Virus record (IMG/VR): IMGVR_UViG_3300025073_000032
Span: 1-64,000 of that record
Source: a virus
DNA: 64,000 nucleotides
Direction: 5' to 3' (one strand)
A program made the translations under genes and the position numbers. Shown here one piece after another: positions 14,483 to 21,900 of the stretch; within the stretch, counting starts at the first letter, position 1; each line of letters opens with the position of its first letter. The notes below the pieces were generated by a model. That model had not been told where the DNA came from and made no database searches. It worked only from the letters and a program-made list of their open reading frames with translations.

Positions 14483-17400
14483 TCAGGACCATATTATATC
14501 CCAGTTATCGGCAAGTATCTTGTACAACATATGAGCTTGCTTTGCTGACAGAGTAAGCTTCTCAGACAAAGAATTAACGTTTATATCCTTTTTACCTACA
14601 TAATGAATAAGACTCTGAATATCTTCTATATCGTAGTCTTCTATGTCTATATCAACCATTTTTGTATTATCATGAATAAGTGTTTCAGCAAGTTCCACAT
14701 GTTTTGCTACTTCATTGATATCATATGCATTCTCTACTAACATTGACTCTATAGCAGATTTACCCCAGTACCCTATAAGAGCGTCTACTAACACTTCTGC
14801 ACCCTCAAAACTAATAGAGTGTTCAAGTCCAGAATCTTCTGTATATCTTAATACTTTCTTTAGTCTATAAGCATCTACACCGCCAGCTCTTTGCACTAAA
14901 TCAAGCATTACTTTAGAATCCTCCTCGTAAGATGATCCCTCGTGAAAAAACATGCTCTTGGCGTTTATAACTTGTAAAGCTATATCAAATGCTGCTTTAA
15001 TAGAGAATTTTGTTTCTTTTTTATTTTCATCTGGCGGAATCCTATCAGCTATTACAACAAATTCTTTTTCTGTATCGTAAAGACTACCTACTTCTTTGTG
15101 CCTCCAGTTTTTACTCCCCCACCAACAGTAAATAGCTGATTTAGGTATATTTTTCTGGATAACAGCTCCTCCATCAAACTCTTCAGCTACATGTCGCTCT
15201 GTAGTCCAACTCTCTAGTGTAGAAGAAGCTGTATAAGCATCACTAACCCCACGATATAGAGTAATAGAGTCATCAGAGCCGTCTACGCCTTGAGGCATGT
15301 CTGCATATTTTGCTGTTAATTTACCCCACACCGCCCAAGTATCTTTTATATCTTCAATTTGCCCTGCTAAAACAGACATTGCAACATCAGTTACCTTGTT
15401 AACTTTTAGTTCTATAATAGAATCAAAAACAATATCTGCACTAGAGTAGCTATCAATCTTAGAAACATCAGTAACATGCCTAAACAAATAAGAATTTTCA
15501 TCCAAGCCTGACTCTGCAATTGATTCAAGCAAAGATGACTTCAAAAAACCTATTTTACTTCTAAACTTAACCATAGCTATATCATAATCAGCTTTAGCTT
15601 GTTTAATTTGAGCTTCAGCCTTTGCTTTTGTATCACTTAAACCTGTAATTTCCTCCTGTGTAGTGTCATACACACTCTTTATATAATCTTTAATAACACT
15701 TTCAAGTTTTGTACCTTGCAGCCACTCAACAGTATCATCGAATTGAACTCTATTACATTGCTGAGTAAAGTATGATGGCCTTTTTGTATTAGTAAACTCA
15801 GAAACATACTGCTGTAGAAGCTGAGCACCTACAGAACGTGAGCTGCTCTTCCAACTTTCTGTAAGTTGTGATATTACAGTACTAGACTTAACTACATCAT
15901 CAGTCACCATAAGGCTACCACTTTTCTGAGACACAGACAACTCAGATATTGACTTGATAACATTGGAAGTTTTTGAGTCATTTAACTCAAGAAAGTAATC
16001 AATTAAATATCTTCGTATACCAGAATAGTTACTGGCATCCCAATAACTCATCGAATACAGAGCATATAAAGCATCTTTGTTATTGTCATATAAATTTGAA
16101 ATTGAAACATCTAGCTGATTCTTGAGTAAGTCTAGCCTAGAGCTTTGTTCTTCAGTGAACTTAACGTTTGTATTTAATATACTTTTAAGCTTACTGACTT
16201 CTTGAGCTTTGCTTTCCAATTGGGAATAAAGTGTTTGTATGTCTCTATAGTTAGTGTAAGATTCGTATGTGTCATTTTTAGCGAAAGGTTCAGTCTCTAT
16301 CACAAAGCTATCACTTACCTTTTTGGCTTTAAACTCCTGAGTAATAAAATTATTAAACTTTGTATAATGCTGAAACACTGATACATCATCCAAAGTCTGT
16401 AAAGATGGAGTTTCTAATACAACCCTCTTGATGCCTTGTCTGTAAAGCCAAGATAAAGCTTCCGCAAACATAGCTTTATTTAATATAATTTCATCTGAGT
16501 CTAATATTCGCATAGGGTTACGTATTTTAGCTTCGTTCTCACCATTTTTAGGCAAAGTTACAGCAAGCAATTTAGAATATTTTTTGTCATAACCAAATGT
16601 AAAGTTTATAACGTTACCATTATCAACTGCTCCCCAAGGTTCAGCAGATACTTCCATCTTTGCTTCTCCAAATGAAGAAACAGTAAAAGTCTCAACTAAC
16701 TGTTGTATTTTGTTCCACAGGTTAATGGTAGGAGCATCTACTTCTTTAGCCTGTTCATGTTTAATAGATTCTTTCTTCACAGACTGAAGTACTGACTTGG
16801 AATCCTTGTTTGGATCGACCCAGTACTTCTGAGGAAAAGTTTTACCCTTTTTATGAACTATCTTCACCATAGGAATCAACGATGGCTTAGGATCGGGAGT
16901 GGATGCAACCGTTCCCATGCTCTTCACCACTCGCAAATTACTTGTAGGCTTATTTGCAGACAAAATCACAAGTCTTCTGGAATCTCCGCAAGCTGTTCTG
17001 GCCCCAAGTCCTCCAGGGTGACATTTGGCCCATAGCACACTTTTACGTAATTTTCCTTTGTCAGAGGGATTTTTAGGCCCACCATCAAGCTTGTGATCGG
17101 ATCGCCAGAGTTTTGCAACTTCTGATCTTGCTTCATCAATTGTTTTTCGTCCTTTGGTGTATTCGTTCCAGACATTGAATATCTCCTTAGATTCATTGCG
17201 CTTTTTGAATTCTTTCGGGAACACTTCTCTAATATATTCCCATACAACTGACTGAAGCTCCCTTGGCAGTAGACCTAAGCGCCCAGCTGCTTTACGGTAA
17301 GCATCAGCTACTACATAGTAAGTGCCTTGTACGCCCTTACCTGTTCCTGGCTTATTGATCCCTCTAGTAACATCAGCTGAACCAAAGTTATGAAGCACTT

Positions 17401-20254
17401 CAGGAGCATAACTTCCCATAGGTGACAAATAGGCAGCAGCTACAGCGTGAGTATCGATGGTTACACTATCAGGATCACTTGGGTCAATAATGTTATTATA
17501 AAAGTTCCGTACTTTATGAGCTTTACTGAGGTTAGGTGATATTGAAGCTCCATCTAGGATGTTCAGAGCTTTGGCAATCGTAGCAGCAGAGGTGAACCAG
17601 GAAGTCTCACCTTTAGTGTCTGTGGTTCTTTCCCCCTCAGGAGTATATACGCTTACTGGAGACTTGCCTTGCGCCTTGTTGTAAGCCAACAGCCAGATAG
17701 CTTTATATTCATTCCCTTCTACTTCTGCAAAGGTTTTACCTTCTATTTCAGACAGTACGCGAGAATCTACATACTGTGCCATTGCCTTATTCCAAGGCTC
17801 ATTCTGTTTGTTATTGTATGTTTCTATTACATGTTGTGCCAGATGCAAGTTCTGGAACCAGTCAAGCTGGGGAGACATTGTAGCAATCACTCCTGCTGCT
17901 TGTTCCTTTGTTATATTATACTTATCTCCCCATTCACCGGCTATCTTGTTAGCTCCTTCGTACCACTTTTTGGTGCTATTGATCTTATCAGGAGGAATTT
18001 GCTTAACCAACCACTCAAGGTTGTCGGTAAGCTGACCAATAAGTCTGGAGATGGTCTTTGCTGGCTGTTCCCCTTTAACTGTCTTAAATCCAGTGTACCC
18101 AGTTACAGATTCAGCATTCTTGGCAACCAGTTTAGGATTTTCTGCCAGGACTGCAACAAAAGTAAGATCACCTTCAAAATCTGCTCTAGGACTAACAGCT
18201 CCACCCTGCTTATGTGATACAGTAACAACTGGCTTTTTTGTCCTTTTATCGTGTACACGCTCAAGCTTGCCTAATCTAATTCTTGTGTAATCAGATTTCC
18301 GTATAGTAAACTTGCCGGTGTTAGGCTCAACCTGTCGTGCTCTGTCATCCCATATTTCTACTATGTCAGGAGTTTTCTTGTTAGTTACTTCAAGCCCATC
18401 AAGCCCGTTTTCTTTAAGCCATAACTCAACAAGAGGAATCTGTTCGTAAGAAGCAGCCCTAGCTGTAAATATCTTGAACTTTTTACCTTCGGCTATTCCT
18501 GCTTTGATTCTATCCAGCATAGGCTTTATAGGCTTACCTATTTGTCTAATATCATCACCATCACTGTATTTAGCCAAAGTCTTATCCAGATCTACTGCGA
18601 TGTAACCTGATTTAGTCAATCTCTCGACTTCTTGAGGATAAAAGGCAGCAATAACACTACCTAGTTGAGGATGATGTACTATGAAACCTTTATATCCTGC
18701 ATCTTTGATCTGTTTCTCATACTTTGTAACAGAGAATACACCATAATCTGTAGACAATGCTTTCAGATTATCAGGATCTTTTGCAAAGTCGTATATCTCA
18801 GTAGGATCAAATTCAGAGCCATACTTATGTGGTCCTAAATCTGCTTCTTTATTATGAAGTTCTCCTACATAAAAGTAAGTACGATCCACCCAGTTCTCTG
18901 GATCAGCTTTCTTACGCTTTACTTCAGCCCCAGCAAAGCCTGAACCATGAGCTGAAGGATCAAGCCTTACAAGATCATTTTTATGACTATAGTGAAATAC
19001 TTCATGCTTCACTCTATTATCATGTACCAGTTCAAGCTTTCCATTCCTTACTCGGTAGTAATTGGCTTTGCGCAAAGAAAATCTGTCAGCTATATACTCT
19101 CTTCTGTCTATTAGAGTACTTATCAGCTTCTCTCTAGTATTGATATCCCACATTGACCCATAAGTGTTCACAATGTGAGCTATATCACCATCGGTAATTT
19201 GAGTCACCTTGGCAGCACTTACTAATAGATCACTAGGTTTTATGCTAGAAAATACACTGGCAGCAGGAGCATTCACAGAAGGATCACGCAACGTATCTAT
19301 TTCGGTCACAGACGAGCCAAACTTGTTACCTTTAGCCTCTCCTCTTGCCCGATATAGCAAAGCTCCACCTACGTCAACTCTAATCGCTTTTCTATCAGAT
19401 GTTGACAGAAGGTTGTCATAACCATCCCCTACTGTGTCCCAATTAGCTAGCCAAGCATCAGTAACAAAACCCTCGTAGGTGCCTTTATGCTCTGGAGTTG
19501 CCAGTGTTCTTTCGATGCCATTCACCCACTTGCTAATTACGCCCAGTTGCCCGTTAGCATTGATGAAGTCGATCTTCGGAACAGCTACTCCTGCAAGCTC
19601 ATACAGCTTTGCAGCTATCACTTCGTTGACCGCTCTATTCTTGTCAGAAGGTACTTTAATATAATACCTCTGACCGGCTTTATCTTCATAAATGCCGCCG
19701 GGATTACTCCCTAATGGGCCACTGACCTTTGTCAGGCTTTGATAGAAGCTCTCTTTCTTGATTCTGGAATCATGAACATACTCAAGCTTTCCATTCCTCA
19801 CTCTATAGTAGTTAGCTTTATTTATCATTTGATGTTCCAAAATATACTTTACAGGATTAGCTTGAACAGTAATCTCTGCTTTTAAATTTTTACCTAACTT
19901 ATTGGCAGCAAACCACCTATGATGACCATCTTCTAAGTATAATTTACCGTCTTGCTTAATAGATACTTCCACAGGCTCATCGAAACTAACTGAGTTTACC
20001 CAGGACATGCCCTCTTTCTTGTACTTATACTCAGGATTTTCTATGTCAGACAAATAAATATTTATATCTGAAGGTTTAAGAGATACTATTTGGCCTGAAG
20101 TTACTCCGAAAGCTAAAGTGTCTAGCTCTTCGATATCCATAGCTATTAATTCATCTTCAGTATAGTGCTTTACTACTTTATTATGTACATGCTCTATTTT
20201 ACCGTTTCGCACTCTTACATAGTCAGACTTACTAATAGTAAACTTCGTAGCCAT
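14483..20254 (-). CDS. 1923-residue polyvalent effector-like head protein
   Basis: A modular protein. Residues 9-26: first KSDYVRVRNGKIEHVHN tag. ~45-140: ParB/sulfiredoxin-like domain (LEDGHHRWFAANKLG). ~143-165: second tag. ~165-385: HipA/kinase-like domain with YIKVPSD Lys, NEVIAAKLY Glu, DAWLANWD...DN and DVGGALLY. ~393-415: third tag. ~415-545: an ART-like polyvalent domain (HYSHKNDLVRLDPSAHGSG). ~548-645: HAD phosphatase/kinase-like domain (VDLDKTLA, FTAR, WDDRA). ~651-672: fourth tag. ~675-1050: helical domain with WYEGANKIAGEWGDKYN and VTIDTHAVAAAYLSP, like uncharacterised polyvalent-protein domains. ~1121-1145: type-B module (GKTFPQKYW). ~1150-1600: helical/coiled-coil. ~1640-1740: ADP-ribosyltransferase-like (YRGV, STLESWT, E-K-E). 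It lies directly upstream of portal. Packaging and injection with DNA are inferred. Confidence 0.8.
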   Translation of the reverse strand: MATKFTISKSDYVRVRNGKIEHVHNKVVKHYTEDELIAMDIEELDTLAFGVTSGQIVSLKPSDINIYLSDIENPEYKYKKEGMSWVNSVSFDEPVEVSIKQDGKLYLEDGHHRWFAANKLGKNLKAEITVQANPVKYILEHQMINKANYYRVRNGKLEYVHDSRIKKESFYQSLTKVSGPLGSNPGGIYEDKAGQRYYIKVPSDKNRAVNEVIAAKLYELAGVAVPKIDFINANGQLGVISKWVNGIERTLATPEHKGTYEGFVTDAWLANWDTVGDGYDNLLSTSDRKAIRVDVGGALLYRARGEAKGNKFGSSVTEIDTLRDPSVNAPAASVFSSIKPSDLLVSAAKVTQITDGDIAHIVNTYGSMWDINTREKLISTLIDRREYIADRFSLRKANYYRVRNGKLELVHDNRVKHEVFHYSHKNDLVRLDPSAHGSGFAGAEVKRKKADPENWVDRTYFYVGELHNKEADLGPHKYGSEFDPTEIYDFAKDPDNLKALSTDYGVFSVTKYEKQIKDAGYKGFIVHHPQLGSVIAAFYPQEVERLTKSGYIAVDLDKTLAKYSDGDDIRQIGKPIKPMLDRIKAGIAEGKKFKIFTARAASYEQIPLVELWLKENGLDGLEVTNKKTPDIVEIWDDRARQVEPNTGKFTIRKSDYTRIRLGKLERVHDKRTKKPVVTVSHKQGGAVSPRADFEGDLTFVAVLAENPKLVAKNAESVTGYTGFKTVKGEQPAKTISRLIGQLTDNLEWLVKQIPPDKINSTKKWYEGANKIAGEWGDKYNITKEQAAGVIATMSPQLDWFQNLHLAQHVIETYNNKQNEPWNKAMAQYVDSRVLSEIEGKTFAEVEGNEYKAIWLLAYNKAQGKSPVSVYTPEGERTTDTKGETSWFTSAATIAKALNILDGASISPNLSKAHKVRNFYNNIIDPSDPDSVTIDTHAVAAAYLSPMGSYAPEVLHNFGSADVTRGINKPGTGKGVQGTYYVVADAYRKAAGRLGLLPRELQSVVWEYIREVFPKEFKKRNESKEIFNVWNEYTKGRKTIDEARSEVAKLWRSDHKLDGGPKNPSDKGKLRKSVLWAKCHPGGLGARTACGDSRRLVILSANKPTSNLRVVKSMGTVASTPDPKPSLIPMVKIVHKKGKTFPQKYWVDPNKDSKSVLQSVKKESIKHEQAKEVDAPTINLWNKIQQLVETFTVSSFGEAKMEVSAEPWGAVDNGNVINFTFGYDKKYSKLLAVTLPKNGENEAKIRNPMRILDSDEIILNKAMFAEALSWLYRQGIKRVVLETPSLQTLDDVSVFQHYTKFNNFITQEFKAKKVSDSFVIETEPFAKNDTYESYTNYRDIQTLYSQLESKAQEVSKLKSILNTNVKFTEEQSSRLDLLKNQLDVSISNLYDNNKDALYALYSMSYWDASNYSGIRRYLIDYFLELNDSKTSNVIKSISELSVSQKSGSLMVTDDVVKSSTVISQLTESWKSSSRSVGAQLLQQYVSEFTNTKRPSYFTQQCNRVQFDDTVEWLQGTKLESVIKDYIKSVYDTTQEEITGLSDTKAKAEAQIKQAKADYDIAMVKFRSKIGFLKSSLLESIAESGLDENSYLFRHVTDVSKIDSYSSADIVFDSIIELKVNKVTDVAMSVLAGQIEDIKDTWAVWGKLTAKYADMPQGVDGSDDSITLYRGVSDAYTASSTLESWTTERHVAEEFDGGAVIQKNIPKSAIYCWWGSKNWRHKEVGSLYDTEKEFVVIADRIPPDENKKETKFSIKAAFDIALQVINAKSMFFHEGSSYEEDSKVMLDLVQRAGGVDAYRLKKVLRYTEDSGLEHSISFEGAEVLVDALIGYWGKSAIESMLVENAYDINEVAKHVELAETLIHDNTKMVDIDIEDYDIEDIQSLIHYVGKKDINVNSLSEKLTLSAKQAHMLYKILADNWDIIWS

Positions 20255-20530: not shown

Positions 20531-20577
20531 AAAAAACCGGCGCATAGAGAGAAAGGACTGAAAAACTCCATGCGCCG
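20531..20577 (-). terminator. Rho-independent terminator
   Basis: CGGCGCAT pairs with ATGCGCCG, extended by GAG/CTC, and is followed on the minus strand by GGTTTTTTATT. A second small hairpin (CTCGC-AGTCACA-GCGAG) lies just upstream at 20584-20600. It ends the short DUF1353 transcript. Confidence 0.88.
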
Positions 20578-20603: not shown

Positions 20604-20981
20604 TTATTTAGACTTCCTCTTAACTCTACACTCTTCAAAGGCTTTCCAGCCTCCAATAGCTACGCCCTGATACATTACCCCGGCTAAAGTTGCATCGACT
20701 CCTAGAGACAACATAGCTTCCAGAAATATCAGATCGCAACTTTCTTTGGTTTTCTTTGAGTAGCGGTAGAGATAATCGTGAAGAAATGCAGCTTTGAAAT
20801 ACTTGCCGAACGGAGGGAGATGATCCCACATGAATTGGGGAGTGCTGGCACCATCTGACTCACTTCCAGCTGGAACTTCTATACGTTCTCCTTCATTTGT
20901 AATATAAATAAAAGGTTCTATGAGAACACAATGCCTACCATCACCTGTTCGTACTAGAATATCAAGCTCTTGAAACGGCAC
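20604..20981 (-). CDS. DUF1353-family protein
   Basis: 125 residues starting at GTG behind ATGAGGATTG. The core SESDGASTPQFMWDHLPPFGKY followed by FLHDYLYRYS and DLIFLEAMLSLGV matches the DUF1353 family found in phages and prophages. The conserved His-Asp and Asp residues suggest a metal or hydrolase site; the activity is not known. It sits alone between its own predicted promoter with structured leader and a strong terminator, so it may be expressed independently of the head operon. Confidence 0.8.
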   Translation of the reverse strand: MPFQELDILVRTGDGRHCVLIEPFIYITNEGERIEVPAGSESDGASTPQFMWDHLPPFGKYFKAAFLHDYLYRYSKKTKESCDLIFLEAMLSLGVDATLAGVMYQGVAIGGWKAFEECRVKRKSK

Positions 20982-21003
20982 TGTACAATCCTCATAAGAA
21001 AAG

Positions 21004-21086
21004 ACTGAGGGAAACTTATAATAGGCTTATTGCCTTTTGAATTTAGTGAGACACCATGCTCTCTTCGACGTATAAGCTCCCTCAGT
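21004..21086 (-). ncRNA. Structured 5' leader, three-way-junction candidate
   Basis: On the minus strand ACTGAGGGA-G-CTTATA pairs with TATAAG-TT-TCCCTCAGT, a 15-bp closing stem with one small internal loop. Inside lie two hairpins: GAGA/TCTC (loop GCATGGTG) and AGGC/GCCT (loop AATAA). It fills most of a 139-bp gap, starts a few bases after a predicted transcription start, and ends about 10 bases before the ribosome binding site of the DUF1353 gene. Could be a riboswitch-like leader, an mRNA-stabilising structure or a small RNA. It does not fit a tRNA. Confidence 0.55.
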
Positions 21087-21098
21087 ACTGTTAATATG

Positions 21099-21127
21099 AG
21101 TATAACCCATAGAATGTAGTTTAACAA
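21099..21127 (-). promoter_or_regulatory. Predicted sigma-A-like promoter of DUF1353 gene
   Basis: TTGTTA (21122-21127), a 17-base spacer and TATACT (21099-21104) on the minus strand, overlapping the stop of the phosphoesterase gene. The predicted start is near 21092, just before the structured leader. The -35 is imperfect (4 of 6). Confidence 0.5.
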
Positions 21128-21900
21128 TATTCACGATACAGACGACTAATGCTTATCTCCTCTATGTCAAATCGTCCAGGTTCATAGATATTTACCAGCA
21201 TTACACCCCTCCAGAAAGGATTAGCGCACCCTTCAGTGAACGGTTCATCTTTCTCGAAATAACAACCGCAAGTCAGAACTTGTATAATATTCTCTTCACC
21301 CTGTCTTCTTCCACACAGTCCTTCTTTCCTATGTGTATGAGCAAAGATGATCGACTTGGATGTATTCTCAAATACTCTGAATATGGCCATTTTCCCATCA
21401 ATAGCCTTGCCGGCTTGATTCATAACAGCATGAGTGAAAAGCACATTCTCTATCTCCAAATAGTGCTTGTACTCTATAATATTAAATCCACGTTCAACTA
21501 AACATAGGTCTTCTCTAGGATCAACAAAGCCCTCCATAGCTGGATTATCTTCGATGAACTTAACATACCATGCTTCATGGTTTCCCATCAGGTAGTACTT
21601 TTGTGGATTGTATACAGGTCTATGGTTTTTACGTTGATTTTCTTGAAGTTCTATAAGAGGATGGAGCAACATGTTCATAGCACAGTTGCCAAAAGCGAGG
21701 TCTTTTCGGTAGCGTCTACCTTCAATGGTTACTTTCTTGTTCTTATCCCAGTGAGAAAGAGACTGCATTCCTAAAAAATCACCCATAGTTACAATCCAAT
21801 CTGGCTTTCTTTTTACTATTAGATTGCCTACAGGCATAAATCGGAACAAATCCTGATCCTGATTTATATGACCATCAGGAATGATAAGCCCTGTACTCAT
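21121..21900 (-). CDS. Calcineurin-like metallophosphoesterase
   Basis: 259 residues. The metal-binding motifs are all present: PDGHIN (Asp9, His11), GDF (Asp41), GNHEAW (Asn107, His108), THAV (His157) and FAHTHRKE (His188, His190). This is the standard two-metal phosphoesterase fold. The substrate could be DNA, nucleotides or phosphoproteins. It is encoded in the late operon next to an HD-domain protein, so both may be virion or late enzymes. It differs from the SbcD-like nuclease encoded at 52.9 kb. Confidence 0.85.
   Translation of the reverse strand: MSTGLIIPDGHINQDQDLFRFMPVGNLIVKRKPDWIVTMGDFLGMQSLSHWDKNKKVTIEGRRYRKDLAFGNCAMNMLLHPLIELQENQRKNHRPVYNPQKYYLMGNHEAWYVKFIEDNPAMEGFVDPREDLCLVERGFNIIEYKHYLEIENVLFTHAVMNQAGKAIDGKMAIFRVFENTSKSIIFAHTHRKEGLCGRRQGEENIIQVLTCGCYFEKDEPFTEGCANPFWRGVMLVNIYEPGRFDIEEISISRLYREYC

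What the first reader, a model, noticed from the sequence alone, without database searches (positions are those of the whole stretch)
21004..21086. Compact three-way-junction RNA in the leader of the DUF1353 gene
A 15-bp closing stem and two internal hairpins fill nearly all of an intergenic gap, beginning a few bases after a predicted transcription start and ending next to the ribosome binding site. Short independent gene units with such a leader are unusual within a phage late cluster; ligand sensing, RNA stability or timing control are possible.
Basis: partly seen in the sequence, partly recalled or inferred. Interest (0 to 1): 0.65.

Follow-up and report, generated by a model that had tools for sequence, protein, structure and literature searches.

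The report
Ultra-conserved phage RNA before a phospholipase-like gene
A virus of bacteria carries an 83-letter folded RNA just before a gene of a phospholipase family, and this stretch has stayed almost unchanged while the rest of the virus drifted by about 28 percent, so it very probably does something specific, although what it does is not yet shown.

Summary
On the minus strand, 21086→21004 folds with a 16-bp closing helix (one bulge) around two short hairpins (z about -4.2). It lies between a sigma-70-like promoter and the RBS of DUF1353. The fold alone is not exceptional: 57 of 8,548 windows of this genome fold at least as well. Conservation is exceptional. One other phage (IMGVR 3300025117_000042, about 72% nt identity) carries it at the same place with 81/83 identities. 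It contains the longest exact match between the two 103-kb genomes (67 nt) and is the most conserved of about 60,000 aligned 83-nt windows, while its immediate flanks are only 54-56% identical. Both substitutions lie in the outer helix and keep pairing as G·U on the minus strand only. There are no double compensatory changes, so the inner three-way junction is plausible but unproven. Rfam and wide viral, phage, plasmid and bacterial-genome searches found no other member. Best reading: a sequence-specific regulatory leader RNA of a phospholipase-A2-family gene, or a short RNA ended at the U-run behind the helix (attenuator/sRNA). Ligand sensing is untested. A weak lead, antisense to the capsid-gene RBS in both phages, is not significant (11/200 shuffles).

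The parts
21099..21127 (-). Promoter-like TTGTTA-17-TATACT; the -35 overlaps the phosphoesterase stop codon
   Evidence: 9/12 consensus; same hexamers and spacing at the orthologous place in the related phage, spacer diverged; identical run TATACTCA p=0.07
21071..21086 (-). 5' arm of closing helix P1 (ACUGAGGGAGCUUAUA)
   Evidence: Fold; pair probabilities mostly above 0.8; one G-to-A difference in the relative keeps the pair
21021..21070 (-). Invariant inner domain: J1/2 CGUCGAA, hairpin P2 GAGA-GCAUGGUG-UCUC, J2/3 ACUAAAUUCAAA, hairpin P3 AGGC-AAUAA-GCCU, J3/1
   Evidence: No difference in the related phage; part of the 67-nt exact match 21010-21076, longest between the genomes
21004..21020 (-). 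3' arm of P1 (UAUAAG-U-UUCCCUCAGU)
   Evidence: Fold; C-to-U difference in the relative keeps a G-U pair
20994..21003 (-). U-rich stretch directly after P1 (CUUUUCUUAU; UUUUUGUUUG in the relative): possible attenuator/terminator tail
   Evidence: d'Aubenton-Carafa-type score -21 in the window, +10 in the relative
20604..20981 (-). DUF1353 gene (GTG start; ATG in the relative), phospholipase-A2-like family
   Evidence: Pfam PF07087 9e-23; H68-D69 and D83 match the spacing of the TtaP H70/D71/D85 residues (PMC11525133; sequence)
20538..20577 (-). Terminator after DUF1353 with fully conserved loop UUUUUCAGUCCUUUCU
   Evidence: 12-bp stem plus U-tail; stem sequence differs, loop identical in the relative
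21121..21900 (-). Upstream metallophosphoesterase gene
   Evidence: phrog_221 6e-23; 82% identical orthologue before the same gap

Best explanation
The element is a functional structured RNA on the minus strand, transcribed from its own sigma-70-like promoter (inferred) and from upstream readthrough. It acts mainly in cis as the 5' leader of a DUF1353 gene that probably encodes a phospholipase A2 (inferred from family). The nascent RNA closes into a 16-bp helix (strongly predicted) that holds an invariant inner domain of about 50 nt. The helix ends at a U-rich tract 22-24 nt before the start codon. The most likely mechanism (inferred) is that the invariant domain is read by a specific partner, such as a protein, RNA polymerase or another RNA, and this decides whether transcription stops at the U-tract or runs on into DUF1353, so that a membrane-damaging enzyme is made at the right time. 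Shown here: the conservation and the closing helix (the latter by prediction and by two pair-keeping differences). Not shown: the transcript ends, termination and the partner.
For: Longest exact match between the two genomes, 67 nt, next 42; highest-identity of about 60,000 aligned 83-nt windows, 97.6% against mean 71.4%, sd 8.0. The conserved block stops at the helix ends; flanks are 20/36 and 13/24 identical. Both phages fold alike, z -4.2 and -4.2, and the opposite strand folds less well in the relative. Both substitutions give G-U on the minus strand, which would be A-C on the plus strand. Same promoter hexamers and spacing in both. No ORF with a common start spans it. More distant phages with a related capsid gene show neither DUF1353 nor the RNA, although most of those records are fragments.
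Against: Only two sequences, with no double compensatory change. The inner domain alone is not significantly structured (z -1.1). The promoter is at chance level by consensus. The terminator score is negative in the window. Identity of helix strands as well as loops fits sequence-specific recognition better than a typical riboswitch aptamer, whose helices usually drift.
Confidence: 0.5

Rival explanations
1. A stand-alone trans-acting small RNA of about 95 nt: it starts just before the helix, ends in the U-run, and base-pairs with phage or host RNA or titrates a protein. DUF1353 is only the next gene.
For: Own promoter-like site, 5' and 3' ends closed by a helix, U-tail behind it; loops fully invariant. 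The P2 segment GCAUGGUGUCUC can pair with the SD and AUG of the major capsid gene in both phages, the best of 105 orthologue pairs.
Against: Capsid pairing is not significant: 11 of 200 shuffled probes do as well, for one of three probes tried. Tail is weak in the window (score -21). P1 ends only 22-24 nt before the DUF1353 start codon.
Confidence: 0.25
2. A 3' UTR element or terminator of the phosphoesterase operon that ends or protects the upstream mRNA.
For: It begins 34-36 nt after the conserved phosphoesterase stop codon in both phages; long stem plus U-run. A second structured RNA with U-tail follows directly on a gene at 29939-29871.
Against: A plain terminator does not need an invariant inner domain of about 50 nt; another terminator here varies in its stem; score negative in the window.
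Confidence: 0.12
3. A DNA-level site (dyad for a DNA-binding protein, recombinase or replication) or an inserted inverted-repeat element.
For: Inverted terminal repeats and near identity in otherwise diverged genomes.
Against: Single copy in each genome, same locus, no target duplication seen; both substitutions make mismatches in a DNA dyad but G-U pairs in minus-strand RNA.
Confidence: 0.08
4. Overlapping protein-coding sequence, or recent recombination between the two phages, explains the identity.
For: One frame is open across the block in both phages (read from the sequences).
Against: No common start codon, no synonymous changes at all, upstream stop in the relative; the identical block ends at the helix boundaries.
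Confidence: 0.05

Closest known systems
HK022 putL/putR antitermination RNA
   Same: About 70-nt structured RNA; putL lies just downstream of a phage promoter; acts in cis from the nascent transcript (PMC9378689)
   Different: put has two adjacent stem-loops, not a long closing helix around two hairpins; it precedes long early operons; binding to RNA polymerase is not shown here
Lambda 6S RNA (pR' leader ended before the late genes)
   Same: Short leader transcript that ends before the gene unless antiterminated (my own knowledge); listed among Hfq-dependent phage sRNAs (PMC12197685)
   Different: No Q-like factor or site identified here; different sequence and much shorter
phi29 packaging RNA (pRNA, Rfam RF00044)
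   Same: End-closing helix plus two hairpins forming a three-way junction (own knowledge)
   Different: No Rfam match; the two hairpin loops are not complementary to each other; no sign of a packaging role
Three-way-junction riboswitches such as the purine aptamer
   Same: Closing helix, two hairpins, invariant junction, in front of a gene (own knowledge)
   Different: No Rfam match to E=10 on this strand; no recognisable core; gene is not a metabolic gene of a known riboswitch regulon
Type III toxin-antitoxin loci (ToxIN)
   Same: Promoter, short structured RNA, terminator-like tail, then a gene for a potentially harmful protein (own knowledge)
   Different: No tandem RNA repeats; DUF1353 is not a ToxN-like RNase

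Membership tests
Any Rfam 15 family | Covariance-model match at the gathering score | tested here: not met
   No match in the window; best at relaxed threshold is a snoRNA, E=5.1 on the other strand
Structured conserved RNA (general) | Stable fold, same in relatives | tested here: met
   z -4.16 and -4.19 in the two phages
Structured conserved RNA (general) | Compensatory double substitutions | tested here: inconclusive
   0 double changes, 2 one-sided changes that keep the pair, 22 of 24 pairs invariant
Riboswitch | Specific ligand binding that changes expression | not testable with these tools
   Needs in-line probing and reporter assays
Intrinsic terminator / attenuator | Stable hairpin directly followed by a U-tract | tested here: inconclusive
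   Score +10 in the relative, -21 in the window
Trans-acting base-pairing sRNA | Conserved complementarity to a target beyond chance | tested here: inconclusive
   Capsid-gene RBS pairing in both phages, but 11/200 shuffles as good for one of three probes; host targets could not be tested
HK022 put RNA | Two adjacent stem-loops of about 70 nt | tested here: not met
   Predicted fold is one closing helix around two hairpins against the published put fold
Type III TA antitoxin RNA | Tandem repeats upstream of an endoRNase gene | tested here: not met
   No direct repeats; downstream gene is DUF1353
Inverted-repeat mobile element | Several copies or target-site duplication | tested here: not met
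   One copy per genome; flanks show no duplication

The most novel reading that the evidence does not exclude
A new phage RNA class whose invariant inner domain of about 50 nt binds a specific partner (protein, small molecule or the capsid mRNA) and couples a phospholipase-family gene, and possibly capsid production, to a stage of infection.
Probability: 0.2. Interest if true: 0.75.

Novelty: new variant of a known kind. Interest (0 to 1): 0.5.

Why it matters
A non-coding stretch that is the single best-conserved sequence between two 103-kb phages is unusual. It marks an unclassified RNA with a specific partner to be found. DUF1353 was recently shown in one case to be a phospholipase A2, so a dedicated regulatory leader on a phage member would connect RNA control with membrane damage, perhaps lysis timing, in a directly testable way.

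Tried and rejected
Homologue hunts found nothing beyond the one relative. Four degenerate-pattern scans of viral contigs gave only that phage plus hits that lack the structure. The bacterial-genome scan gave two chance hits. BLAST of phages, plasmids and E. coli found nothing credible. The covariance model found nothing in 31 other records. SD sequestration by CUCAUA/UAUGAG was rejected because it is present only in the window and CUCAUA would lie largely before the predicted start. A coding explanation, a DNA dyad and a mobile element were rejected. Antisense pairing to the capsid gene was kept only as a weak lead. A first promoter-run p-value of 0.00025 ignored gaps and was corrected to 0.07.

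Full report
What is there. All genes around the site lie on the minus strand: a metallophosphoesterase (21900→21121), a 139-nt gap, then DUF1353 (20981→20604, GTG start). Read on the minus strand, 21086→21004 folds into a 16-bp closing helix with one bulged U, enclosing a 4-bp hairpin P2 and a 4-bp hairpin P3. MFE is -28.1 kcal/mol, z -4.16, none of 200 shuffles as good. The closing helix and P3 are well determined; P2 has a pair probability of about 0.55 and a competing hairpin. The inner domain taken alone is not significantly structured (z -1.1). Stability alone would not single the element out: 57 of 8,548 windows of this strand fold at least as well.

Conservation. The window belongs to a 102.8-kb virus record. 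One other virus, IMGVR_UViG_3300025117_000042 (103.5 kb), has the same gene order; its phosphoesterase and DUF1353 are 82-83% identical. The two genomes are 71.7% identical over 63.6 kb of aligned columns. The element is 81/83 identical. It holds the longest exact match of the two genomes, 67 nt (the next is 42 nt), with about 4e-6 such runs expected at the average identity if sites were independent. It is the most conserved of about 60,000 overlapping 83-nt windows (97.6%; mean 71.4%, sd 8.0; next best 94.0% inside the terminase gene). The two next-longest exact matches read as coding. The sequence on either side of the helix drops to 20/36 and 13/24 identity, so the conserved block ends where the helix ends. 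No protein frame with a common start spans it.

Which strand, RNA or DNA. The two differences between the phages are at column 10 (G-U in the window, A-U in the relative) and column 78 (G-C in the window, G-U in the relative). Both keep the minus-strand RNA helix; on the plus strand or in a DNA dyad each G-U would be a mismatch. The relative's plus strand folds less well (z -2.8 against -4.2). This favours minus-strand RNA but rests on two differences. There is no double compensatory change, so covariation neither proves nor disproves the inner three-way junction.

Transcription signals. TTGTTA-17-TATACT precedes the helix, with a predicted start about 6 nt before it, and the same hexamers with the same spacing sit at the same place in the relative. 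Such matches are expected by chance, and the conserved run TATACTCA has p=0.07, so the promoter is likely but not established. Other sigma-70-like promoters are shared by the two phages (28068, 23513). Behind the helix is a U-rich tract. A standard terminator score is positive in the relative and negative in the window. DUF1353 is followed by a terminator whose stem differs but whose loop UUUUUCAGUCCUUUCU is identical in both phages. DUF1353 therefore looks like a one-gene unit.

The gene. DUF1353 family member TtaP is a phospholipase A2 with catalytic residues H70, D71 and D85 (PMC11525133). The window protein has H68-D69 and D83, the same spacing (my count). A membrane-damaging product would make a dedicated leader sensible; this is inference.

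How far it reaches. Rfam has no match. Pattern scans of viral contigs and bacterial genomes, BLAST of phages, plasmids and E. coli, and a covariance model on 33 records found only the two phages. Several records with a 43-46% identical capsid protein show neither DUF1353 nor the phosphoesterase, though most are fragments. The host is unknown; the capsid protein is closest to that of SPO1-like phages at about 40% identity.

What it does. Identity of loops and helix strands alike suggests sequence-specific reading of the whole inner domain. I favour a cis leader that controls expression of DUF1353 at the U-tract or at the adjacent RBS (0.5), over a trans-acting sRNA (0.25), a 3' element of the upstream operon (0.12), a DNA site (0.08) and coding or recombination (0.05). 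In a target search the segment GCAUGGUGUCUC pairs with the SD and start codon of the major capsid gene in both phages, the best of 105 orthologue pairs, but 11 of 200 shuffled probes do as well for one of three probes tried. It is a lead only.

Comparison. It works most like promoter-proximal phage leader RNAs: HK022 put (PMC9378689) and the lambda 6S leader (PMC12197685). It belongs to no tested family. It is best filed as an unclassified RNA family of a known broad kind.

Noticed in passing
window 29939-29871 (-); L031:5124-5191 (+): A second structured RNA with U-tail directly after a 95-aa gene, present in both phages, with 8 base pairs that change on both sides and stay paired. Weakly resembles the cobalamin riboswitch core (10.1 bits, far below the 31.5 cut-off).
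   Followed up: partly
window 20577-20538 (-): Terminator after DUF1353 whose 16-nt loop UUUUUCAGUCCUUUCU is identical in the related phage although the stem differs; the loop contains UCCUUUCU, like the 3' tail of Bacilli 16S rRNA (own recollection, not tested).
   Followed up: partly
window 8940-8890 (-): The leader of the major capsid gene (AAAGGAGGCACGTAAACCATG) is well conserved between the two phages next to diverged sequence, with one insertion in the spacer only.
   Followed up: no
window 14483-20254 (-): A 1923-aa protein with repeated R-[VI]-R-x-G-K-[LI]-x-x-V-H-[DN] motifs, also in the relative; possibly a modular virion protein with repeated targeting or cleavage signals.
   Followed up: partly
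window 7420-7338, 7192-7110, 40288-40206 (-): Very stable long hairpins (MFE -32 to -39 kcal/mol per 83 nt), more stable than the element studied.
   Followed up: no
window 1 and the far end of the 102.8-kb record: Both ends of the record align to nearly adjacent positions in the relative, so the genome is probably complete or nearly so and circularly permuted.
   Followed up: no
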